Assembly (NCBI GenBank): GCA_947561715.1
Contig: OX387204.1
Location: forward strand, 2,919,001 to 2,983,000
Origin: Ascidia mentula
Taxonomy: Eukaryota > Chordata > Ascidiacea > Phlebobranchia > Ascidiidae
Length of the DNA: 64,000 nt
Direction: 5' to 3'
Positions 28,801-57,500 of this stretch are shown here, piece after piece. The translations under genes were made by a program, and so were the position numbers. Each line of letters begins with the position of its first letter. Positions within the stretch are counted from its first letter, which is position 1. Below the pieces are notes generated by a model, which did not search any database, was not told the DNA's origin, and worked only from the letters and a program-made list of their open reading frames with translations.

Positions 28801-31800
28801 ATGCTGGTAATCGTCATCAAACGCGGATACCTGTGTTACATCATAAGCCTTTGTTACGTCATCATCGCGCTCATGGCCGCGTTTTGCTTGGACTGCAATC
28901 GAGTCGTGCACACCCGCAACCGCAGAGGTGAGTGACCAAACCACGCCAGATAAACCCATGGTTAAAGAAGATTGATAGTGGAGTCTTGCGTACGACTGGA
29001 CCCCGCAGAAAATAGGCGACCGAACTGGCTGGGTTCATTGGCCCGTAAACCCAAAGGCCGGGTTTTGGCAGAGAGCCGAGGGTAGACATAGTTTTCTTTC
29101 GGCTAAATCTCCACGCACCATTATATCGCTTTGCTAATACACGGTAAACATAAAGCAGGCGCGAAACTTGAATTGTTGTTTGTTGCTAAAATCGAGCTAA
29201 TAAGTTGACCGTTTTTCGTGCGGTTTTAGCTAATGGTGTGTCGCAAATCCCCACGTTCACCCCGAAGCGCTTTTCAGCGATTCCACCTAAATGGTGGAAC
29301 GACGGTGCGGGCGCAGTTAAAATGCCTGTTCGCCGGTAAAACGAGAGTCACTGCGTGCAGTATCTTGACGCCCGGGAAGGACGAGAGCCAGAATCCCGCA
29401 TAATGGATTGTGTGAAAACGTACAAGGCAACTCTGCGTGTGTGTTGTGACTCGCAAATTACCGTGACAAGCCTTTACATGGTGTAAGGTTGCACTGCGTG
29501 GTTCGCGTTAACCGACCGGGCCAAGGGGAGGCAATGGACCCGGCGCCCTGGCGAAACCTGGAGGAACATTATACACGACCTGTTCAAGTGCGGTCTCTTA
29601 ATTCTCGCCGGCAAGTTCAAGTAGGCGTAGGTTTGTTTGTTGCACGGGTCATATGTTTTACATCCAACCGCCCTTTGTACTTTTCACTATCGGTTTTCAA
29701 TCGTCCGGGCCGCGCCGGCGATTACGCTTCCAGAAGGATCGCGGCGAAAACATGACACGTGCTCGGGCACTCCAGCTATCAATGCAAGGCATTGTGGCTC
29801 CTTCTTGGGTCGTCAGATGTCGTTGCACGCGAGGTCAGACCATACCGAAAGCATCCATTGTTGAAGCATAACAACATTTTTTAAAAAAAATTCAAAAAGT
29901 AATATATCTTATATTTTGTTGCTCGATCGGCTTCACAAAGTATTGCAAAGATTTCGCGTTAATTTCCACCACGCGAGGAATCTCGTGACGTCGTCGTTCC
30001 GTGCCGAACTACAGGCCCATTTCCCGATCCGGGGCCCAAGAAGATGAAAGTTGTTTTCTCCAAACAAGGTCGTGACCCTAAGTGGATGCGACAGTCCCCT
30101 AAAAAGCGATGTGCCGCGCTTGGAGGACGTAATTGCGTCGCTTTCGAAAGCGCCCACGTTGGAATGCTGGTCGTTTGATCGGGGGCAGGTGACAGCACTC
30201 TAACATATGCAAGCACCGTGTGACATACCCAAGGCTCGGTGGCGTTGAAACGAAAGTAAAACAACCGGATACCGGGCTTTCTTCTGCCGAAAAACTCGCT
30301 CGAAACGCTACATTTTTTGTGCCAGACTCAAGCACCGCCACAAGAAACCAACAGCGCCCCCAAAATCAGGGACGTGCTCGTATCAGTGCGGACAACACGT
30401 ATTGGTTGGACGCGTGTTGAAAAGCCAACTCCCAAAACCATACCTGACACACGTTTATGTGGGCTGGCACTATCTCCCGCGTTGAAAATAACACGTAAAG
30501 GATCCTTTTTTGTCGGGATTTTGGCGTCAGGGATTTGTTATTACTAGATGGTCCCCCTTGCTTCGGCGGCTTTTAACGATCTCGGCCCAGACTTGAAAGT
30601 TCTTTGGGTTGACCGCAGCCATTAATCCAGAGACAGGCTTGGGAATATGGTGGTAACTGTTACAATTTCTGTTAAACGGTAACTGTACAAAGCAACGTGA
30701 AGTGGCGAATTCAGTGCGTTCTTCAACAAAACGCGTTTCGACGATGTATTGAAAGCGGTAGCAAGTATCGCATATATTTACCGCAGCTTCTGCAGAAAGG
30801 AAAGGAACCCGCGATCGTCAGAACGCAAATAATTGATTTGACGCATCAATGAAGCATGAGCGGCAGTAGGTGATCCTCGACAATGGGGATTATGCGTGCG
30901 CGCGATTACTGAAAGAGGCGCGGTGACCAGATCAAGCATCGTTCGAAACAGGGAGACGACGCGAGGCCCAATTTCCCATGACCGCGCGAGCCGTCGGCGG
31001 AAATTCTGGCACCGGAAAACTTTTCTTCGTGTCCCCCGCGCGCGATAATTACGTCAGCAGACAATTGGATTTTAGGCAATGAGTGCAAGGAGAAAGACCG
31101 TGAATTAGGGCGAAACAACTGGGCCGGAGCAAACTTTGGCCCCGCGCCGTCGACTTCGATTAATGGTATTTCGACAGTTTCCGCTTGTCTGTCGGTATCG
31201 CGTGTTCGTTCGCGCGTTGCGACGGAACTGCCACGGCCTTCCGATGTTAATTCAATAAGGAACCGCGCGGCGATATGCATTATTCATCAGGCGTATTGAT
31301 TCGAATGCGAAAATTGGCGCAATTACCAGCTCTTTGCGGCGCTAATGCTGCCGCCGTCTGTAATTTCATCTCATAATTGAGAGCGACTAAAAACGACCAG
31401 GTTTGTTCGGGAATGCAGCGCGACCGACCTTGTCAATTTGGCGACCGCGGTTCGGGGGCGTTTGCAATTTTGCTGTTGCTCGCGTAAAAGCGAACCGGAT
31501 AGCGGGAACCGGGCGGGGACGCGGGAATAAGACGAGTGACAACGACGGACGGGTAAAACAATGTCACGGTCGGTCTAAATTAAGGCGGGCGTGACAAAGT
31601 TAAATCGATCCAAATTTATTTTCATTGTGGCCAATTTTACATTTGTGTTGGGGCACTTTGTAAATGTCACAAAAAACTATCGGAAGAAGTGAGCGTTATT
31701 CACGTTATTCAAACATCAAGTTGTCTATGATGGCATAAGTATTTGCCGAAACAGACAATATGTTAATAACAGTATGGGCCAGTCTTTTTATTCTCAGAGT

Positions 31801-34800
31801 TTTTCTATGTTTTGGTACACTGCATGTTCAAACAATGTCCTATATATCAGGAACATTTTTGCGGACAGCTTTAAATGCAAATGGTGCGGGGACGAAAAGT
31901 CGCATCAACTTCAAGTAAAGTAGACAAGAACGCTGTCACGCCCATTAGGAGTACATGCATTTTTCGTTTTACAACGATGACCTTAGCTGTTTCGGCGGAA
32001 GACAGCGACATCATTAGTATCGCTACTTCGGCTTGAAAAAGTCTCCGATCCATTTGGTCCCGAGCCGAAAACAGTTGTCTGCCGTCGATTTGATGCGCTA
32101 TGTGCCGTAAAGGCGCCCGTTTTTCCCCCAAAATCCCCTTGCGCAGACGCACGTGCAGAGATTGCAGCCAGATAGAGACAAACAAAGGATAAGACGCCAT
32201 CCCCAATTCACAGGGACTGGTAAAATACCCGGGACGTTGCTCAGCGGTCCAGTCTTATCATAAAAGCCTCGATGCCGAATCGCACACCGATAACCTAATG
32301 GAATGGCCCCAAAGGCAGCGACAGAATTCGACAGTTAAATGTTCGCTTTTAAAGTTGTTTAAAGCCATCCCCTTGACGGCATCGTTCTGCTACCCTCTTT
32401 ACTGTCTTATCAGGCAGCCGCCGATAAGTTTTTGCCACGGCAAGTTAGGAAATATATCGTGGCGTGATGACATATGGCGAGGTACCGATGGCGTATCGCC
32501 TTATAGTGGAGCTCATCACGTTGCTGGGACTCCTCGTGCTCAGCTACGGACGACATTACGCTCTCAGGCGTATTCCAAGATCCGGACCGACCCTAATTAC
32601 GAGGCGTGTGCTGATACATCAAGGTATGCATCGCAGATAAACGTCAGGTTACACAGTGGTCTGGGTGTTTGTGTTCAGGGGCCTGTCGGGAGACGCAGGT
32701 GTGAATGCGACACAACTCGTCTGACCCCGTCAACTATGCAGTCGCCTAGAGCCGTTGCAGGTGCGGCGAGAACATAAACAGGTCCCAGGTTTCCTCGAAT
32801 GTCTATCATGTATCCACCGAACGCATTTCTTCACTTTCAAATAAGCGACTGTTCTGGTGTTTATTTCGCCGTGGCGTGCCCCGCATGCCGTCGCTGCACG
32901 AGATCTTTGCGCGCTGTTGTTTCACTGGCTGGTTGACCTCGACTTTTGAGGTAAAACTTAAACAGTTTGTTGCAGCATCACAATGCTGATCGCTTCTGTT
33001 GACGCTGCGGTTTCTTGTAGCGCGAAATATATATTGACCAAGCAGCTGCACTTCACCATTGTTTTCTGTAAATCGTCGCCGTCAAGGCGTTGGGGTGATA
33101 TGGAGTCAGGCATCCTGGGCAAGTTTAATTACCTGACCTTTGAGTTTGTGCTGTACATTTAGATTTAATGGTTCGCAAACTCTTTGCAACCTCTATTACC
33201 GCCAGACACAATTATTTTCCAGTATATTTGGTTTCATCGGTCCCCACGCGACATATTCATTTTCGTATTTGTTGATCAGTTACGTGGTATACCGTTATAC
33301 ATGATTTAAATGATTTGATTTGTTCATTCACTGCCGGTGCGTGAGATCGGGGTTAATTTCGCAATGTACACATTTGATGGCGAGGTTATGCCATCCAGAA
33401 TTTTCCACAGAATGTTCTTACTTCAAACTATCTACAACTGATTTTACAAATGCAAACATTCCGCCTTCTGTGGCAAATCACTGATTGTAGATAGTGGTTA
33501 ATGCTTAATCTTCCTAAAACCTTGATGCAGTGATATACGCCAGCATAAATCCAAATCATAGGCAACAGCGTATTAAATTTGTACGTATTCATGTCTTAAG
33601 TATAAGCGTTACATGCTACTGTATGAACGGGGCATGATGGTCCCGTTGCATACAGTGCTCAAGCCCTTTTTTCCCAGCTCTCGTATTTTGATCATAAGGT
33701 TCACAGGCATACCTTGGTTGCGGTGCCAGTAAAAACTATTTTACACTTTGACATTTCAACCCTTGATCCCAATGTCTTACACACAACTAAACGTTACCCT
33801 ATTGTTCTCAGGGACATCGGATTTGCCATTCGTGTGCGGCAGTTTATGCGTAGACTGCACTACGCTCCACAACGGCTGCCCGAATTGCAAGGGGATTCAA
33901 CAGACGAAGTTTTTATTCGTTGACCCGAATACCCAACGCTCGTTTTGTCTTCACCGCTGTCCCCCCGGTTACTACGACCATCGGTCGAAAAAAGTGGGAT
34001 TTTCATGTAAAAGTAAGTCACAGGATACTTGTTCTGTTTGTTTGAGTGTTTTTCGGAACGCATGTTTCGGAGACGCCGAAAAATGTAGATGTACATCATG
34101 TAAACAGCCGATATTCGGCGAATTTTAATCTAATGATGCTATGGTGGGTGATTAGGCAAGTTTCGGCAGGTTATCCTCAGCCGTATTGATGTATATGGGC
34201 AATAAAATTACAAGCTGCGCACATTAACAATACGGTACTCATCGCTCATTCCGTTTTCAAAATATCGTTTACAAAATTGTTTCCTGGTACAGTATCTTTA
34301 TTTAAAAGAATGCCATGAGTTCATTTGCGGCATTTGCTCTTACAGACACCCCCTGTCACCCAAATTAAACATTATCCACTATGTTACAATTCTATACAAT
34401 ATGCCTAAGATTTTGAGTAGAGATTACGCTTCCCGCAATCGCCGCATTTAAAGTGGGAAAGTTTTACGCGTAGTGACGGGACACCGTGACGCCAATTTTA
34501 TTCACACGGTGACTAAATATAGGCATTCGCATCCAAACTTAGCTCTGGCTTTGATGGAACTACAAGCAACGCTATTATTTTTTCGCCTGAATGCAGTTCA
34601 TCCACATGGCAAGCTTTGATATTTTGTAATCACAGCTGCCTCTCGCAGTATCGCATATGCGGCGCAGAGCTCGAAGCCGTGCGGCGTTTACTGTGCTTTT
34701 AGTATTATCAATGTCGTTATCTCAGGTCGGCGTTTATGCCAAGGATAAATGCTGGCAACCGCGCATTCGCAAATATGCAACAACGCGTTTTCTGTTTAAA

Positions 34801-37245
34801 ACCTCCAAACTGTGGTCGTCTGGCAGGGAAGCGCGCACGCAGCAACAGTTCACCAATTTTCCGTTGTTGTTTACTTGTGGTTCTAAGTTTGGAAACAAGG
34901 CTCAGAATATTGCCACGTCACTGCTCAATTCGAACCATTTAAAATAAAGAAGAACCTATGGTTACTGTTAAACGTATGTGACTGTTTTAAAAAAGTTTTG
35001 TAATTAACTTACAACTATGCTCGGAGTTATGTTTAAGTGTGACGATCTATGCGGAGAGACAATAATTCATCCCTTTAACTTCGCCTTGTGGATGGTGAAA
35101 TTACTAAGGCGCTGAATTAAAATTACTTTTGTACATTTCTGCTGGTGCTTCCGATACTAAAACAACGAAACAAAAAAACACGCGTGATGTCATCGTGTAG
35201 TGCTGGAAAAGTCATTGCGCAAACAAGGCACGTGGCTTGGACTGGCCAAAAATCCAGGCCACCTGAATAACTGTGTGAAGTAAGTTCAGGTTTAAAGTGG
35301 TCGAACGATTAACAACGTATTCTTCGCAACGAAAATAAACTCCTCCACAACCTTTAATTAAAATTTCGATTGTTTAATGTTTTATTCTCATTCTTGATGA
35401 GCGCAACATATATGTATTTCCATGCCACAATTTGCCATGGGGCCAACAGAGCCTAAATCCATAACTGGTGTCGATCTTATAGGAACCATAGCTCGTTGCT
35501 TAACCCCAAAATTTCCGCGAAATAGAATTTTCAAAGGAAAGAAATTCTGCAATGAGCGACAGAGATTAAAAGTACGTTGAGTGCATTTCGTTTTTTTATA
35601 GCGTGATTCGCTTCAGTTTTCATTTCCGAAGTGATAAACATTTTTTTGCAAGACTGTGTGCGTTTGCTTTCAAATCTGGTTATAGCGGATAAAATATCTA
35701 CAAACTATAGTTCAGTTAGGTTGAACCCATCATGCTCCCGAACTACGAGGCTGTGAGACGGAGACCGCTAGACCGAGCGGCATCTTTTAATTTACGACCT
35801 CGTCCAGACAAATATTTGTTTGGTGGCACAATTACGAATGCTTTTACGTCATTCGGAGTGTATCGCAACAAGTCACGGGTTTTGATTCCAGTTGAATTGG
35901 ACTTGGTCGAGCACGGCACCAACGAAAATTTTGCCGTGAAATTGAAAGTGTGGAATTGAAACGATGTCCAAACTTGTTTCGTTTCATTTGCCCGCGGAAT
36001 GTTTTGGGGAGCACAGAGAGCTACAGATACTTTCCAGCACAGAGCAATTTAACATTTTCTACACTCTCGCTGTGCTGTGTGGATTTTTGGTCGCTACAGT
36101 CCGCGGGGTGTTCTTGCGTTTTATCACTCATTCGTGTAGGAATGAATAACCGCTTTATTGTCTGTTGAGACACTAACGCACAGACACAAGTTTGATAGAA
36201 GGTACGTTCTATTGCTTTTGCCTTATCACAAGCAAAAACTGGACTATCGTGAATAACAAAGCAAATTCTCGTCCTAACTGTCACTGAAGCAGAATACGTC
36301 ACTGTTCAATTACAAAATTAAAAACATTATAGTACATGCAATGTGCATTAAAACACTGCTCACTGTTTAACTTGCAGGATGCAGTCAAGGCTGTTCATCG
36401 TGCGACCACCAGTCCAAGTGCAACCAATGCTTGGATAATTTCTATCTACACGATTCTTCGTGCGTTTCCCAATGTCCCAGGAATATGATTCCCAGCAATG
36501 ACACGTGTATAGTGCGGGAGCCTAAAAGAAAAGGTAATGGTTTCTGTGGAAATGGTTACAACAACTTATACTACTGCTAAATCCATTTAATGCTCTATTC
36601 AACGGTGTCCACAAGCTTTTTGTAGAACGCTATCTAGTATTAACTTGTTATATAGTTAACAACAGGTTAAACGGCCAAACCAACGGGATCCCAAATTCCA
36701 ATATCTATAATGCATTATTTGAATCGTTTGTAGATGAAAAACTTTAATTTTTTTCGAAAATGTTGTTTTATGTTTTGTGACTGACAGGGATAATGCTTCC
36801 CACTGCTCCGCGTCCCCTAGTACAAAAGCTGAGCTCCACAAATTAACCAATACGCGTAATTTGCCCTTGCAGGGACATCTCACACCAAACTCCGAACTTC
36901 AAAGATAAACAAATGTCGCACAATTTTTAAAAGATGCAAGAAGCGAAAAAGTAAAAGGAAAAAAAACTGCAAACGAAGACACACTGCCTGCAGAAGAAGA
37001 ATAAAGTGCAGTAAGAGCTCCTTGTTTGTTTACGTGTTTAATTCGGGTCCTTTATTTGGGCGAAAAGGAAACAAAACGTAATCTTGTCATAATAATTATC
37101 GTCTCATTATTGGCCGCTGGTTTCAAGCTCACAGAGATATGTTTTCACAGACCGCATCACGCGTCCAAGGTTCTGCAACAACCGACCACGTGGTCAGTCG
37201 TCCAAACAGCCCAACAATTCTAATCGAATCAACGGGCACAAATAA
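28801..37245 (+). CDS. R-spondin-like secreted protein lacking a TSP1 domain
   Basis: R-spondins are secreted enhancers of Wnt signalling. Proposed coding exons 28801-28927, 33812-34012, 36378-36533, 36873-37010, 37151-37245 are all in phase 1 and give 238 residues. Exon 1 gives a signal-peptide-like hydrophobic start (YLCYIISLCYVIIALMAAF) and a basic HTRNRR. Exon 2 is furin-like repeat 1 (about residues 51-108: CGSLCVDC, GCPNC, CLHRCPPGYYDHR). Exon 3 is repeat 2 (about 111-152: CSQGCSSC, KCNQCLDNFYLH, CVSQCPRN). Vertebrate R-spondins then have a TSP1 domain; here exon 4 goes straight to a tail rich in Lys, Arg and spaced Cys (KRCKKRKSKRKKNCKRRH), and exon 5 ends RPRFCNNRPRG with its stop. 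Exons 2-3 are secure. Exon 1 rests on signal peptide, donor and phase across a 4.9 kb intron. The 3' end is uncertain: exon 4 read through its donor would stop about 25 codons later. TSP1 could be truly lost or lie in an unseen alternative exon. Confidence 0.75.
31721..31758 (+). repeat. GATGAT/CGAAAY hairpin repeat, copy 2
   Basis: The arms TTGTCT and AGACAA pair perfectly over 6 bp. They enclose ATGATG, a short GC stem with an AT-rich loop, and CGAAAC. The copy at 57187 (read on -) shares CATAAGTWTTTGCCGAAAC. Four bases downstream starts a 36-bp segment that recurs at 57310-57345, which suggests both belong to a dispersed element. Confidence 0.55.
31762..31797 (+). repeat. 36-bp dispersed repeat segment, copy 1
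   Basis: This segment matches 57310-57345 with one mismatch by eye; it contains ACAGTATGGGCCAGTC and ends TTCTCAG. A 36-bp near-identity is not expected by chance in 64 kb. It is probably the remnant end of a dispersed element, family unknown. Confidence 0.6.
34013..36377. other. R-spondin intron between furin-like repeats, with unexplained open frames
   Basis: A 2.4 kb intron. It contains a + strand frame at 34657-34947 (96 codons) that begins like a signal peptide: basic n-region, hydrophobic FTVLLVLSMSL, small residues before YAKDK; its stop overlaps an AATAAA. A second frame at 35732-35959 (75 codons) is also unrecognised. Neither joins the R-spondin exons in phase. They may be small nested genes or chance frames. 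Confidence 0.35.
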
Positions 37246-40200
37246 ACGCGACAGCCCCACTACACATACTGCCAGGGGGAACCCCAATGATGACGAACTC
37301 GGCAGTCCGCCCGACCATACGTGGGAGACACGGTCAAGCGCAAAGGAATAACGTGGAAGTGCGCAAACCATAAACGCTTATGAGTATGAACGGATTATCA
37401 CCAACGGCGGAACTCAGTGGCAAAACTCGCCGTTTCCCACACTGCTCCACCGCGTGGCTGTCAAGGTGACTTTGCTTTGGTCGTTAACTCGTCTCTCTCT
37501 GTTTCTTGTGTTTCTTCGTGTGCTTTTTGTGAAATGCGCTATTTATTTATGATTCTCATGAAATGAAGGCGATCCCCTTTTTACTGTATAGATATATACG
37601 CAGATATATATATGTATACACACCTTACAGCGCCGCTGTTTTGCGGTTCCAATTTTAAATCGCACGCTTCACAACTTTTCTGTATCTCACAATATTTTCC
37701 AACCTACAAGAAATCCACATATCACCACATCATCTTTGACTTGCCACGGTAAAATGATTATAAACTATCCATTGAGCACCATGCACTGATATAGGTAGGA
37801 CGCACGTGTCAAAAAAGGAATCAGCTACGAACTCGGACGTTATTGTAAAAACATACAGCTCTTTTCATATAAAGGTTGTTCTTGCATGAAATAATTCTGA
37901 CCAATTTTTTTTCGGAAAAAAACACAAGGCTCTCGTGAAAAATGCAACGAGAATGCTCGTTTTCTATCCAATAACGACGGCCATTAACGAAACGCGAACA
38001 AAGCCGAAGGACCACCGGCTGATTACGTGAGCGTCGTTTCGATTTGCACAACCGACACAGAAACGCCCTGATGTGATCGAGTGACAAACAACACCAACCG
38101 CGTGCCGTTCTTTCGTGCAGCTCGAGTTGAAAAGCGAGCCGCCTTTTTGATGTCCTCGTAACAAAGTCGCGGCTAGCGCAAAAGGTGGGTGTTGCGGGAT
38201 TCCCTCCGTGAATACGAGGTTGGGTTCAATGGGAGGGGAAGGACGAATCGCGTGCGGGGGCTCGAGGGGGAAAGTGTCACGTTTTAAAACATGCACAGGA
38301 AGCGGCCTCGCGTCGTAAGCAAAACAGAAACGCGAAAATAGACCTTACGCCATTCGTGGCCTGCGAGGCCCTTGACAAAGCCGAGTTGTAGGCAATGACA
38401 AGGACGTAGGTACACAATGAGAGTGGCACCGGCCCAAACGGAGCGCTCATCAGGAAAAACAATCCCTAAAGCGGCGCGGGAGTTGCCAGAAATCGTGGCA
38501 CCCGACGCTGGTGGCTCCGAGGTCAAAGGGATTAAAAACGGCTCTAGTGTTTTGAATGTTTCGGGGCTCACTCGACTGCGGTAGGCCTAGGAATCACACG
38601 ACTGAGGGCTCCACACAACAGCGGGTGAAGCTGCTGCACTGCGGTCTTCGGCCTTAGTCCGCTTACGGCATGGTCCGTAATCGGCTTAAAAGCGTCAGTT
38701 ATACTTGGGCGTGGGAAGGGGATGCGAATACAATTTCCTGACGCAAGGTGGTCCTTCGAATGTCTCAGCAGCGAAACGTGGGCTGTCATCAGGACGTGCC
38801 ACTGGACCAAACACCCACAAAATATTGGAAAAGTAAGGGGTCCGGGGCCTTTCGCCCACTCGAATCCCCACCTTGTTCACTCGGTGGCTCAATTAATTCC
38901 CCTCAGACCCCAAATGGCGGAGACATCGTTGAAAGACGTCTCCAGAGTGGTGATGCTTCGCCGCGAGAATTCGATCGATGTGCACGATATGATAACCGAG
39001 GCGATAAGGGCTTGGTATCGTCGCTTCGTCTTGTTGTTTTGCTGGTTGGATCTTAAGCGCGATTCTTTGGCCGAATTCGTCTCGCGTTCTCGTCACTTGA
39101 TACCGTTCCGTACTCTTTTTGTTATTGTTGTTGCCCTGAGAAAAATGCAATTTCGTCGCTCACCAGCATAAAAATAAACGATTCTCGTCGCGTCCCTTAC
39201 CGCCTTTCCATGCATTTTTTGTATTTGTTTCATGTCTGTCTTTTCGGCGTTTTCCCTTTGTTATTTCCCATTTTCAGTGCAAGTTTTATTTTTGTTCAAG
39301 AATCATCAAGTCTTTTACATTTGTTCGTGTTTGTTTAAATTTAAAGGAAGTCAGAATCAACTCCGCATGTGTGCAAAATTTTCCCCTGTGGGCTCCAAAA
39401 TACGCCAGTGAATTTATGCTTACACGGGCAAGCGCTATTTTTCTTCTAAAAACAATGATAAAAGAGCAGTATATATGGTTTGAAAAAAATACAATGCTCA
39501 AAGCGGTATATATAATGTGTGCTAAAAATTAAACCACAAAAATCCATAACCTCAACCAACTTTGTTGATTTCGTCACCAGCAGAGCAGAGAAGGCCCGAG
39601 CACGTGGGTAGGTCGCATAATTTCCCAGATGCGTCAGACGCAGTGTTGACGGGTCACCTCTGTGTTTACTCCGAGTGGCTTCACCTGTAGCGTCATAGGG
39701 ACTTCCAAGAAATCGTTGGCACGCTGCTTTTGGTTAAGTGTTGAAAAGACAGAACCAGTGACGTATGTTTTGTTACAGAGCATTTGACCTTTGGGTTCAT
39801 TTCAATACTTTGGTGGTCGTCGGCCAAATCCAGCGGAAAATGTATGTCGATGATAAATTTGAACAAAAGTTTTGTTTTGTAATTGTAACGCCATAACAAC
39901 TGTGAAAAATCAATTGTACACAAATAAAAGGGGTAAATTTTAAAGCTTAACATATAATTTTGAACCTTTTATCACAGATGCCAAGTCGGCCAAACAGATG
40001 CCGTCTATAAATTTTCCAACCGAAAAACATAAAAATGTTCACAAGGCCAAAACTACTTTGATATAATTACCGCACCACTGTTGGCAACTGGTGAAACATT
40101 ATTCCGTTGACTGGGATTACCCTTATAGATGCCTACAACTAGCAGAAGCTGCAAACACTGCATAAAGGACGCGATCTCGAACGAGATACTGCAGCAACAG

Positions 40201-43883: not shown

Positions 43884-47340
<3,457 letters not shown>

Positions 47341-51595: not shown

Positions 51596-54500
51596 TCACT
51601 TCGTTTTCTTTGTTGCCTGACCCAACTCAACAGTTCTCACGCGCTGTGCAAATTGCAATGAACAAATGGTTTCACTCACATTTTTGTCCACCGGTGAAAC
51701 CTGCACTACCATCAATGTCTTGCTTTCTTTACCTAAAATAATTGTGTCAAGTACCGTTATTATGTTGAGTACAGGTTGAAAAATTGGTGGTAGTTTAAGC
51801 ATATGCAGTTAGTCTTGACAAGGCAGCCAATTTTATCGTGTTCAGACCCTCAGTTTATCCCTAAATCACATTTCCGCAATAAGATTCAATATTATTTTTC
51901 TTTCAATTTGCACAATTCAAAACATGGAAACACTGTTCTTAAACGTGTGCCTAATTCGACGATAACTGTAAAATTATATGTGCCCATGCCATTTTACTGC
52001 TGGATAACCAACACCCTTCACTTACTCAACGAATCTTGCAACAGGTAGGTAAGTTTGGAGTTGCGGAAAGGCACGTGCGATTGCTTGTTACGTAATGCAT
52101 GGATGACGTCACCGAGTGACGAAAGACTTTTGTTAATGTTCTGGGCCTCCTTGAGTCGATCACCAGAAGCGCCACTTTTCGATACTCGTTCAGAACCCGC
52201 CAAATCTATCAGGTTCAACTTTCCTGCGCACAAGAGAGGTCAAAGGTTACTCGAGGTCAATCGTAAAATGTGCCACCTGGGGGTTTAGAGCAAAATGCAA
52301 CGCGCTTAGCACTGCAAGTTTAATAAATATGCAATTTGGTCACTGCGACAACAAACAGTTTTTAAGATATGCTGGGTAGAAACTCCTGAAGGAAATCAGT
52401 AGCTGTCCCAATAAATCACAATAGTTAATATACGGTTTGTGGGAAATTAAATATTTTAAGCCGCTCGTTTCCAGAAATTGACCGCGTTGCGAGGCGAAGT
52501 TAACAATAAGTTGAAATTTACTGTAGTCTATGAGGTACAACAGCTAAACACCGAAACATATTTGGTCAGGTCTTACCGAAGGACTCGTTTCCAGTTGTTT
52601 TGTTCATTCCACTCACTGTTATGACAAGAACGGCGTGGGATCTCGAGCTGTGTTCGTTCATGTTGGTGGAGGCAGTAGCGCGATTCGCCTTGCCCGTCTG
52701 GAAAACCTGTTGGCAGAGTTTCCACGCTTAACAATTTTGTGACATTCAAGTTTTAAATATGTTTTTTTGCTGTTGTGGCGAATAGGGACGAATGTAAATT
52801 TTAATTTTTTGGCATTCTTTTAATTATTTAACAAAAACGTAACACGCCACGTTTCTTTTATTTCACTTTATCATAATTTGGTCCATAATCTTCATAATTA
52901 ACGCGACTCACTTTGTTAACTTCGTTGATATTGTGAACTTCCCGACTGGTCAAGCCCTGAACGAACAAACTTCCATCCACGTTCATCTTAATGTCGAGCT
53001 TTTGTTGTGAGGAAGATGACAGCAAATCCCTGAAGCAAGTTCATGTCTTTTATAAGTGACATGTACATTTTAACTACTATCGTAACTTGCAAACACCATA
53101 AAACAACCATCATAACTTGCAAACACCATAAAACAACCATCATAACTTGCTAACACCATAAAACAACCATCATAACTTGCAAACACCATAAAACAACCAT
53201 CATAACTTGCTAACACCATGAAACAACCATCATAACTTGTAAACACCATAAAACAACCATCATAACTTGCTAACACCATAAAACAACCATCACAACTTGC
53301 AAACACCATAAAACAACCATCATAACTTGCAAACACCATAAAACAACCATCATAACTTGCAAACACCATAAAACAACCATCATAACCTGCAAACACCATA
53401 AAACAACCATCACAACTTGCAAACACCATAAAACAACCATCATAACTTGCAAACACCATAAAACAACCATCATAACATGCAAACACCATAAAACAACCAT
53501 CATAACTTGCAAACACCATAAAATTACCCTTTTTTCATCTATATGAAATGGAAATCTACATCGGGTAAATGTTTACACTTTGGTTGATAAAATGCCTAGT
53601 TTTTAACTCAATTCGGTTCAGTCTTATAATGTTTTCAACCATAGTCCAGTATAATTAATCGTACCTGAGAACTTCGTTGTAAATTTCCACAAGCGAAACA
53701 GACACAGTGTAAGTCCAGTCATCGGAACGTTCTTCAATCGTGGCAAAAAGATCGGACAAAGCTCGTTGGTTGATTCCAGGACTTGCCGGGATGCCCTAAG
53801 ATGGGAAAACCCCCAAAATGAAAGGAATGTTTTAAAAAACGCTAATGTTCTAAAATATACAATTACACATTCTGTTGTTTACAGTTACCAAGGCAACGCA
53901 CCTCCATGGTGAAGGTCTTCCCGGAACCGGTTTGGCCGTACGCGAATATACACACGTGATATCCGTCCATACAGGAAATCACTAGAGCTTGAACCTCCTT
54001 GTAAACCTGTCGCATTATTTTTCATTAAACATCTTACTCAAAAAAAGCAATTTTTTCAAGGTCCATAGCAATTTTTTCAAGGTCAATATTATGTTGCTAC
54101 CATGTATATTTAATTAATCTGTTCTTCTGGCACAATTAAATGTATACCGGTAGTGCCGACGTTAAAATTACGTTATTTTACAAATAAACGCTATTATTAA
54201 AATAAAAAGAATTCTCTACGCAAAAAATCGAAAATCCTTCGAAATTTTTTTCAAGACCTCTTCCTGTGAGGAATCGTGGTTGAAAACCCGGTCGAGTTCG
54301 AAACTTTGCTGGCGCCCTCTCTGCGGGTTGTTCACCGTCACGATTGCGTCATCGTTTACGTCATAGGTCAACATCATTTTCGCCGCCGGGCCGTCTTCGC
54401 CGATCTTTGGACGCGCCCGAACGAAGACGCGGATATTTCCTGGTGGCAAAACATTGTGAAGATAGTTGGTTTTGTATTGAGGTTAGATGGGTTTTCTACC

Positions 54501-57500
54501 TCTCAGTTCCACCAGTTCGTTGTGGTATTTCTTCCTCAATTTCATCTCTTTACGGTATTTTCGCACCAGGTCTTTGCTGTTTTCATTGATCTCCGTCACA
54601 GCTTCGGATATCTGTAAACAGTAATGTTGTTTTTGAGAAATTAGACCGCCATTGTTTTTCCCACCAACAACATTACCCAGTTAATATTGTTTAAAAAAGG
54701 ATTTAAAAATTAAAAACGATGATCAAACACAATATTTTGTAGGCAATGTTGCAGTTTTAATATTAATAAAGTTAAGTATATTAACATCTAAGAGTATATG
54801 CATATAATAGCCTATTACATAAATCTTTCCATATTCTGCATAATCATACTTGTTTGCCAGCAAGTTTAACAGCTTGTTTGATCAGTTCAGGGAATTTGAG
54901 AGCTTCTCTTTTCAAGAGCGAGTTTTCATGGGACATCTGCTTCAACGCACTCGTAACCATTCTAGAATACGAGAAACAATCTTAAACAAAGGTATTGATC
55001 AAGGTTGTGGCATAATTGTTTCTTTTAAATCAATGCTGTGTCAAATTATATGAATTATGTCATGTTGTAAAGGGCGTGGAATCAGAAAACCTTTTACAGG
55101 TTATTGCGATAGGAAAACAAGGCAGTAATAAGGTAAAATGGATTTTACCTCACTGATTTTTCAAGTGTGGTAGTTTTGTCCCTTAGTTCCTGGCTGGTGA
55201 TGGCAGTTGCAGCTTTGAACTTGAGAACTTCATGCTTGTGAGATTCCCTGGTTGCTTCCATGGATTTTTCATGGGCTGTGAGTGACCCTGCTAACTCTAC
55301 TTCCAACTGTGAAATCTACAAAGCAAAATTGTTTAGGTGATAAATACTGCCTTTCACTACTTTATGAATGTCACACAGGAAGTTTGACGGTGTTTTGCAT
55401 GACCTTGACAAATGGGTTTTTAAAAAAAGTTTACGAATCTAAACACTTATTTTTACAGGCATGAGACAATGGTAAATTAACTCCAATCTAAAGCCAAATC
55501 AATTCAACTTGGTACAGATGGTAGCATATTTAAACATGTTTTATGCATATGTAGATTAGTGTTTAGATTGTCAACTTAATTGTTGATATTTGACTGTTAA
55601 AAACCCAATGCTTCTTTATCAAAACTCATTTTCATGCGAAATGTTTTGGAACAGAAAGCTTATTCTTTACAACACAACCAAAATTTTCCCCATTTAAAGT
55701 ATATAATATATGTTAATAAAGAGTCACACAAAAGTCTATATTTTAACTGGCATCCCCACAAATGTCCTGAGGGGTCGAAAATTATATTATATCCTTGTGT
55801 AATGGTTTTAAGTGTAGGCTATTACAGGTTGCACACCTTTGATTGCAGATTCTCATTCTTAGTTTTGAGTTCAACAAGTTTTCTGGTTTCAGCTTGCAAT
55901 GCATGTTGTGCAGAGTTTAATTGAACTCTCAATTCACCACTTTCCTTTTCCTTTTCAGCCAAAGCACTTGTTGATTTGCCGCTAAGAAGAGCCAACTAAA
56001 AACAGAAACATTCGTTGGAAGTTTCAACATCACAAATACAAATTGTCTGAGCGGTCGTGAAACCTGCAAAAACACCAACTGGAAATTATACCAGCAACAA
56101 GTATAGTTTCAGTGTTAATGCGTCTTGCATTGTTTCTGTTCTTTTTATACAAGATGAAAGCAGTTTTGATGAAAAAAATGCGTTTAACTTCAGGCAATAT
56201 TGTTTGCATTTTAAATGTAGTCACATGTGTATGTTTCCTATTGCTGCGGAAATGTGATAAAAAAGTACCTGTCTTTCGTAATTTTCCTTTTCCACTTTGA
56301 TTCTGTCAAGTTGGTCATTCAAATTTGCGGCTAGTGTTTCTTCCTTGGCAAGTTTCGATTTAGTTTCCTCCAACCTTTCATTAGTTGTCTCAAGTTGTTG
56401 CGAGAACCTACCCACTGACTCTGTCAATTTTTCACACTAAAAACAAACAGAATCAGATTCATTATCACTATATATTGCACTTTTTTCATTACCTGAGATT
56501 CCTTTTCTGAGGTTTTGGAATTTAGGGTGGAGATTTGGTCTTTGAGCATCTTGGATTTCTCATTTGACTTGCTCAGCTTGTCATCGAGTCTAAAAATGAT
56601 GTTTATTTGGAACAAAAATATCAATAAATGAAGGACTACTTTTGTATGTTACAGTACAGTGTATATACTCTATGTGTTTTAAAAGTTACATAACAAACCG
56701 CTTAATGTCATCCATCGATTTTTTCTCCTGCTTCTTCAAACTTTGTTCTGCTTCCAAAAGATCCTTTTTAAAGCCTTCCTCATTTTTCTTCATTGTCAAT
56801 TTTAAGTCTTCGAAATTTTCATGAGCCTCAACCCTTTGCTGATGAAGTGAAGTCCTTGATTCCTCGAGATCTTGTTCGATCTCTTCAATTTTCCTCTGTG
56901 ATGTTGTTTTTTGCTTCTCAAGATTATTTTCAAGCTTTCTGACATTCTCAAGAAGCTCGTCATTTCTGTTTGTCAGTTTTTTGCACTCATTCTCGTAATC
57001 CTGTAATCTCTCGACTTGCCCAGTAAGAGAAACTGTTTCTCGATTCAATCTGAAAAAAGGATTGTTTCAACATTTGAGTTGTTGAAACCAGTATATACCA
57101 CAAACTTAGGAACACAACTCATGGATTTGCTCATAATTCTGAGAATAAAAAGACTGGCCCAGACTGTAGTTTACTTTGTCATTTTTGAAAAACGTTTCGG
57201 CAAAAACTTATGCGATCATCAGTTTGGATGACGCGGTTGGTGTAGCTCCATCATTATATGGAGCTGACCTGACACAGATAAGGCTCATGCCTTTTTCAAA
57301 CATGACGATGTTAACAACAGTATGGGCCAGTCTTTTTATTCTCAGTATATATCAACTATTTAACTTTAGTGTCTTGTGCAACTGTTTGAAAAAATTTAGT
57401 CTTGGCAGTCTGCCAATGGCAGACAAACAACATGACTTAATTTAGGTCAAACATATGTAAAAGTTGGTTTCATACATATATATAATATAGTGAACTACAT

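What the first reader, a model, noticed from the sequence alone, without database searches (positions are those of the whole stretch)
36873..37245. R-spondin without a TSP1 domain, ending in a Cys- and Arg/Lys-rich tail
Vertebrate R-spondins run signal peptide, two furin-like repeats, TSP1, basic tail. Here the in-phase exon after furin repeat 2 goes directly into a basic tail, and no WSxWxxC-type exon is visible between 36378 and 37245. The tail also holds about six spaced cysteines, unlike a plain heparin-binding basic tail, so it may form a new disulfide fold in place of TSP1. TSP1 and the tail normally bind proteoglycans, so matrix binding could have been remodelled in this lineage.
Basis: partly seen in the sequence, partly recalled or inferred. 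Interest (0 to 1): 0.7.

Follow-up and report, generated by a model that had tools for sequence, protein, structure and literature searches.

The report
R-spondin without its TSP1 domain
A sea-squirt-like animal carries an R-spondin (a secreted Wnt-signal booster) in which the usual thrombospondin domain is not found and a basic, cysteine-bearing tail sits in its place, and in which key receptor-contact residues also differ, hinting that this growth-signal system was rewired.

Summary
Five exons (28801-28927, 33812-34012, 36378-36533, 36873-37010, 37151-37245), GT-AG with four phase-1 introns, join into one 238-aa frame: signal peptide, two furin repeats with 16 cysteines, then a basic tail with six cysteines, no acidic residue and no Trp. 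TSP1 models find nothing in six frames of the window (best 8.6 bits; left-out human RSPO TSP1s 34-54). The tail is the most basic 45-residue frame of the window. No transcript could be checked.

TSP1 is not found. A new fold is possible: the tail exon alone is predicted as a helical hairpin (pLDDT 87, no control fold), with cysteines as C-x6-C-x10-C-x6-C. Because the exon sits in TSP1's slot, it could also descend from it. Its charge suggests proteoglycan binding is kept.

New here: R66, Q71, F106 and F110, reported as near-universal receptor contacts, align with P, S, D, K. The genome has a divergent LGR4/5/6-like gene whose residue at the Phe-clamp target (LGR5 A190) is Tyr, and ZNRF3/RNF43 ectodomain exons. 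Best reading: a remodelled R-spondin acting mainly through heparan sulphate and ZNRF3/RNF43, without the classic LGR clamp. New variant of a known kind.

The parts
28801..28927 (+). exon 1: signal peptide and R-N-R-R basic site, ends in phase 1
   Evidence: donor GTGAGT. Signal peptide judged by eye. Start codon uncertain: another in-frame Met lies upstream. Phase 1 agrees with human RSPO4 c.79+1 (PMC12226482, passages)
33812..34012 (+). exon 2: furin-like repeat 1 (ZNRF3/RNF43-binding repeat in vertebrates); R66 and Q71 positions read P and S
36378..36533 (+). exon 3: furin-like repeat 2 (LGR-binding repeat in vertebrates); F106 and F110 positions read D and K
36534..36872 (+). intron 3, 339 nt, where a TSP1 exon would be expected; no TSP1-like frame
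36873..37010 (+). exon 4: basic five-cysteine exon (46 aa, 22 K+R), symmetric phase 1-1, in the slot of the TSP1 exon; predicted helical hairpin
37151..37245 (+). exon 5: end of the tail with the sixth cysteine, stop codon 37243-37245

Best explanation
This is an R-spondin-derived gene, the only one found, in the genome of a tunicate-like animal. It keeps the signal peptide and the two furin repeats with 16 cysteines, has no recognisable TSP1 domain, and carries a strongly basic cysteine-bearing tail in that exon's slot. Most likely mechanism: the tail holds the protein on heparan sulphate chains of cell-surface proteoglycans, furin repeat 1 engages the animal's ZNRF3/RNF43 ectodomain through a reshaped hairpin, and the complex is cleared, which raises Wnt receptor levels. 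The classic Phe clamp on LGR4/5/6 is missing on the ligand side and its target residue is changed in the LGR relative, so LGR binding is lost or rebuilt. Shown: gene anatomy, no TSP1 found, residue changes, presence of ZNRF3/RNF43-like and LGR4/5/6-like genes. Inferred: splicing, secretion, tail fold, heparan sulphate binding, signalling route.
For: One 238-aa frame over five exons, all introns phase 1; Furin-like_2 and R-spondin-2 matches; 16 cysteines in this furin segment and in human RSPO1's, 14 in the same columns and two shifted by one residue; no TSP1 in the window, with controls; tail exon beats simulation and is the most basic frame; 30 K+R and no acidic residue in 77 aa; F106/F110 to D/K and R66/Q71 to P/S, residues that PMC12111769 calls near-universal in more than 400 species. 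RSPO3 F106E/F110E was little affected in cells without LGRs, where TSP/BR is required (PMC5800842); TSP/BR can be swapped for an unrelated heparan-sulphate binder (PMC7239654); deleting TSP or BR alone had minor effects in normal cells. ZNRF3 ectodomain exons present; LGR4/5/6-like gene with A190 aligned to Tyr.
Against: R67A/Q72A RSPO3 cannot signal without LGRs, so the R66/Q71 changes seen here speak against a plain LGR-independent route unless the ligase adapted, which was not tested. An LGR4/5/6-like receptor exists, and one known contact may persist (RSPO1 D85 with LGR5 R144 reads D with K). The tail has no XBBXBX or XBBBXXBX site by the strict pattern used. PMC7239654 says, citing another paper, that TSP/BR is conserved in vertebrates, primitive chordates and hemichordates; whether tunicates were included is not known. 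No transcript, no related species, no complex model.
Confidence: 0.5

Rival explanations
1. Origin of the tail (not exclusive with the mechanism above): exon 36873-37010 is the old TSP1 exon eroded in place, with Trp layers and first cysteine lost and the surface turned basic.
For: Fourth of five exons, symmetric phase 1; human RSPO4 has five exons with the furin repeats in exons 2 and 3 (PMC12226482, passages); in Xenopus rspo2 TSP1 is a distinct exon (PMC7642414, passages). First cysteine pair is C-x6-C, as is C2-C3 of RSPO TSP1; random placement of six Cys gives the post-hoc pattern in 0.06% (strict) or 0.5% (loose) of draws.
Against: No sequence similarity beyond composition: negative bit scores with three TSP1 models, matched or beaten by 783, 956 and 1772 of 2000 shuffles; pairwise alignments to four recalled human TSP1s matched or beaten by 1192-1940 of 2000 shuffles. 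The predicted fold is helical, whereas TSP1 is a three-stranded fold. The spacing x6-x10-x6 is explained as well by a symmetric hairpin. Confidence lowered from 0.4 to 0.3.
Confidence: 0.3
2. Ligand and receptor co-evolved and the protein still works through LGR4/5/6, with the hydrophobic Phe clamp replaced by charged contacts.
For: Two LGR-like exons align without gap with LGR5 144-215 (32 of 72 identical); A190, pinched by the Rspo2 Phe clamp (PMC4533229, passages), is Tyr; Q189 is Asp; H166 K, W168 H, V213 E. The R144-D85 salt bridge of the LGR5-RSPO1 complex could persist as K with D.
Against: Only A190, Q189 and R144 are contacts confirmed by the passages read; H166, W168 and V213 are recalled. 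No complex was modelled. The receptor is divergent (22% to LGR5 in the 7TM part), so changes at a few sites are weak evidence. Confidence raised from 0.3 to 0.35 for the D-K pair found on re-check.
Confidence: 0.35
3. A TSP1-coding exon exists and was missed: it is split, lies outside the window, or is used in another isoform.
For: Genomic sequence cannot show isoforms; pieces under 15 aa were not scanned; TSP1 exons are abundant elsewhere in the genome.
Against: Intron 3 is 339 nt with no candidate frame; no TSP1 frame in the window; a stop ends the tail at 37245; of the 150 scored places in each (the strongest of about 1600 candidates) none lies in the window.
Confidence: 0.08
4. The tail exons are not part of the gene, or the gene is decaying.
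For: Purine-rich stretches stay open by chance more often than a first-order model assumes; four contact residues are changed.
Against: Splice signals and phase fit exactly; 0 of 1000 simulated regions hold a comparable basic exon; furin cysteines kept and no frameshift.
Confidence: 0.1

Closest known systems
Vertebrate R-spondins RSPO1-4
   Same: Two furin-like repeats with 16 cysteines, R-x-R-R-like basic site before repeat 1 (recalled for the human proteins), basic C-terminal tail, five exons with phase-1 first intron (human RSPO4)
   Different: No recognisable TSP1; six cysteines in the tail where the four recalled human tails have none; R66, Q71, F106 and F110 positions replaced
Engineered RSPO3: TSP/BR swapped for a heparan-sulphate-binding scFv (PMC7239654) and F106E/F110E (PMC5800842)
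   Same: Clamp residues replaced by charged ones; no TSP1 but a presumed heparan-sulphate-binding C-terminus
   Different: Natural, with FU1 contact residues also changed; heparan sulphate binding not tested
Teleost RSPO3 with a third furin repeat (PMC12111769)
   Same: Lineage-specific change of R-spondin domain make-up
   Different: Gain of a furin repeat instead of TSP1 loss
Twin Cx9C (CHCH) and alpha-hairpinin helical hairpins (recalled)
   Same: Two helices with symmetric cysteine pairs; here C-x6-C-x10-C-x6-C with predicted helices 3-21 and 27-43
   Different: Different spacing, extreme basicity, extracellular; no sequence match, disulphides untested, fold matches generic

Membership tests
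R-spondin family (RSPO) | Two adjacent furin-like repeats (Pfam Furin-like_2) with conserved cysteines | tested here: met
   44.8 bits, cut-off 28; 16 cysteines in both segments, 14 in the same columns as human RSPO1 and two shifted by one residue
R-spondin family (RSPO) | TSP1 domain, called the motif that distinguishes the family in PMC12111769 | tested here: not met
   None found in six frames of the window, with left-one-out controls; transcripts not seen
R-spondin family (RSPO) | Basic C-terminal region | tested here: met
   30 K+R of 77, no acidic residue
R-spondin family (RSPO) | R66 and Q71 (ZNRF3/RNF43 contact) and F106 and F110 (LGR contact) | tested here: not met
   P, S, D, K in two MAFFT alignments; the furin-2 pair is unambiguous, the furin-1 pair lies beside a two-residue gap
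R-spondin family (RSPO) | Five exons, furin repeats in exons 2 and 3, first intron in phase 1 (human RSPO4) | tested here: met
   Predicted exons against PMC12226482 passages; splicing itself not observed
R-spondin family (RSPO) | Potentiates Wnt signalling through ZNRF3/RNF43 | not testable with these tools
   Needs protein and cells; ZNRF3 ectodomain exons are present in the genome
TSP1 domain, for the tail exon | Trp layer and six cysteines recognisable by profile | tested here: not met
   Negative bit scores, no better than shuffles; no Trp
Disulphide-laced helical hairpin (twin CxnC type), for the tail exon | Two antiparallel helices joined by two disulphides | tested here: inconclusive

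The most novel reading that the evidence does not exclude
In this tunicate lineage the whole R-spondin contact set was rebuilt: TSP1 replaced by a new basic helical hairpin laced by twin C-x6-C disulphides that binds heparan sulphate, the ZNRF3/RNF43 hairpin reshaped, and the LGR Phe clamp replaced by charged contacts matched by changes in the receptor (A190 to Tyr and neighbours). It would be a natural experiment in how a conserved ligand, receptor and ligase set switches its chemistry while keeping its scaffold.
Probability: 0.2. Interest if true: 0.75.

Novelty: new variant of a known kind. Interest (0 to 1): 0.5.

Why it matters
A review passage says all R-spondins reported so far have TSP1 (PMC9848353), and a survey calls the four contact residues near-universal in more than 400 species (PMC12111769; a search of its main text for four tunicate words found none). 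A natural chordate R-spondin lacking both tells which parts are dispensable, and would test outside engineered cells whether heparan sulphate can stand in for LGRs. Loss of TSP1 also predicts loss of the BMPR1A-blocking role shown for RSPO2 and RSPO3 (PMC7642414).

Tried and rejected
Rejected: 'LGR4/5/6 was lost here'. The human LGR5 7TM query gave only weak hits (77 at E up to 0.001, best 6.1e-9), but C2:about 10,175.6-10,199.2 kb (minus strand) holds an LGR4/5/6-like gene: LRR cap, LRR exons, a C-C hinge and a 7TM frame whose eight best PDB matches are LGR4 (E 1.5e-15; thyrotropin receptor 6.3e-11). By the 7TM part alone it is nearly a tie: LGR4 53.5, FSHR 52.4, LGR5 48.9 bits. My note gives its place wrongly by about 0.7 kb.

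Rejected: the C52 hit as a second R-spondin (31% identity, E 0.003); it is a run of many furin-like repeats. A very divergent second copy cannot be excluded: human RSPO2 finds the window's own furin exons at only 18.6 and 18.7 bits.

Unproven: sequence homology of the tail to TSP1 or to a PDB chain (best E 8.3, Myosin-VI). The one loose CSVTCG-like hit (31186, intron 1) is not TSP1-like by the HMM scan. Rfam found nothing.

Flawed steps: one search used minus-strand loci unturned and is superseded (only its count of N is used). The profile shuffle test returned no scores and was redone. The Furin-like_2 genome search found nothing even here, because the domain is split by an intron. Two slightly different recalled versions of the RSPO4 TSP1 were used.

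Literature: in the listings (several capped) and the passages opened I saw no description of a tunicate R-spondin's domains. Styela RSPO2 and Ciona Rspo3 appear as gene labels. A figure legend of PMC5786327 lists C. intestinalis in trees of four families that include R-spondin, so a Ciona sequence may be in print; the figure was not seen. Of the 10 papers I opened passages of four. PMC12111769 was read as abstract, passages and part 1 of 2 of its Results; the other papers as passages only.

Not obtained: a Foldseek search and a control fold of another basic frame of the window.

Full report
What is there. Splicing 28801-28927, 33812-34012, 36378-36533, 36873-37010 and 37151-37245 gives one 238-aa frame; every junction is GT-AG and every intron is phase 1. 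The furin repeats match Pfam Furin-like_2 at 44.8 bits and R-spondin-2 chains in PDB at E 2.8e-14. The segment has 16 cysteines, as in human RSPO1; 14 fall in the same alignment columns and two are shifted by one residue. Searching the 195.8-Mb genome with the protein finds this locus and one weak hit (E 0.003) in a run of furin-like repeats. Human RSPO2 as query finds no further furin-repeat place, but it finds even this gene at only 18.6-18.7 bits, so 'the only R-spondin found' is as far as this goes.

What kind of animal. The genome holds two matches to glycosyl hydrolase family 6 above the curated cut-off of 27 (32.0 bits, and 27.8 bits with one stop inside). In animals I recall this family only from tunicates, tied to cellulose.

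TSP1 is not found. Models from seven TSP1 domains of this genome, from four recalled human RSPO TSP1s, and from both, were run on 2847 open pieces of at least 15 aa from six frames of the window; best scores 8.3, 8.6 and 7.4 bits. Human RSPO TSP1s left out one at a time scored 45.6, 46.2, 54.3 and 34.0 bits. The genome-only model is a weak detector of them (23.3, 17.2, 15.7 and 6.9 bits), so the claim rests on the models that include RSPO sequences. TSP1 is abundant elsewhere: 150 of about 1600 candidates were scored in each and all 150 matched, none in the window. The 339-nt intron 3, where the exon should lie, has no fitting frame, and the window holds no N.

The tail exon passes every sequence test available. 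In 36534-38500 it is the only symmetric phase-1 open stretch of at least 40 codons between good sites; 28 of 1000 simulated regions have any and 0 of 1000 one with K+R of 35% or more (criteria chosen after seeing the exon). It is the most basic of 16144 overlapping 45-aa open stretches of the window. It has 22 K+R in 46 residues; with the last exon 30 in 77, six cysteines spaced x6, x10, x6, x5, x8, and no acidic residue. The recalled human tails hold no cysteine. No Pfam family or PDB chain resembles it.

Origin of the tail. Human RSPO4 has five exons with the furin repeats in exons 2 and 3, and a variant named c.79+1 puts its first intron in phase 1 (PMC12226482, passages); in Xenopus rspo2 TSP1 is a distinct exon (PMC7642414, passages). 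So the 46-aa exon sits where TSP1 should. It may be that exon, eroded, or a basic exon split by a new intron after TSP1 was lost. Cysteine spacing favours the first weakly (post hoc); sequence scores and the predicted helical fold do not. I lowered this rival from 0.4 to 0.3.

Receptor contacts. A survey calls R66 and Q71 (ZNRF3/RNF43) and F106 and F110 (LGR) near-universal in more than 400 species (PMC12111769, passages and part of Results). Here the aligned residues are P, S, D and K. The furin-2 pair is unambiguous because the cysteine frame is identical; the furin-1 pair lies next to a two-residue gap. R67A/Q72A and F106E/F110E in RSPO3 weaken ZNRF3/RNF43 and LGR binding respectively (PMC5800842, passages).

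Receptors. The genome has exons of a ZNRF3/RNF43 ectodomain (46.7, 34.7 and 29.7 bits) and an LGR4/5/6-like gene on C2. Two of its exons align without gap to LGR5 144-215, 32 of 72 identical, best register 155 against 119. LGR5 A190, pinched by F105 and F109 of Rspo2 in the crystal structure (PMC4533229, passages), is Tyr; Q189 is Asp. So the Phe clamp is missing on both sides. Against a full loss of LGR binding, the D85-R144 salt bridge of the RSPO1-LGR5 complex could persist as D with K; I raised that rival from 0.3 to 0.35.

How it most likely works. With the clamp gone and a strongly basic tail, the closest working model is the LGR-independent route: ZNRF3/RNF43 through furin repeat 1 and heparan sulphate through the C-terminus, in which TSP/BR can be replaced by an unrelated heparan-sulphate binder (PMC7239654, passages). 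The weak point is the changed furin-1 hairpin: in human RSPO3 such changes abolish LGR-independent signalling, so the ligase must have adapted or the route is different. The same source as for the binder says TSP/BR is conserved in 'primitive chordates', which makes the loss look derived; whether tunicates were among them is not known. TSP1 loss predicts no BMPR1A binding.

Verdict. An intact, R-spondin-derived gene. By the family's own definition it fails on TSP1 and on the contact residues, so it is filed as a non-canonical variant, related by descent. It is more than a missing domain but cannot be taken further without transcripts and related species, which the collections used here do not offer.

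Noticed in passing
G000 C71:8.77-9.74 Mb (L042 and rows): Dense array of TSP1-domain frames, some over 2000 aa long, apparently a local expansion.
   Followed up: no
G000 C69:0.13-0.91 Mb and other places (L026-L035): Many 7TM frames, often in open frames above 1000 aa; 10 of the 12 fetched loci are closest to relaxin receptor RXFP1 among four recalled references: a possible expansion of RXFP-like receptors.
   Followed up: partly
L025 (G000 C52:14951518-14951946): Glycoprotein-hormone-receptor-like (type A) LGR: 121 bits to FSHR against 65.5 to LGR4 and 55.5 to LGR5.
   Followed up: partly
window 44506-45242 (+): Two exons of a TMEM144-family transporter (28.2 and 60.9 bits, cut-off 26.2), the only clear neighbour among ten frames scanned.
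   Followed up: partly
window 53072-53523: 30-base tandem repeat, 15.1 copies, 95% matches, inside a 154-aa open frame on the minus strand.
   Followed up: no
window 56689-57066 (-): 126-aa frame with a weak match to LRRFIP (18.7 bits, below the cut-off 28.2).
   Followed up: no
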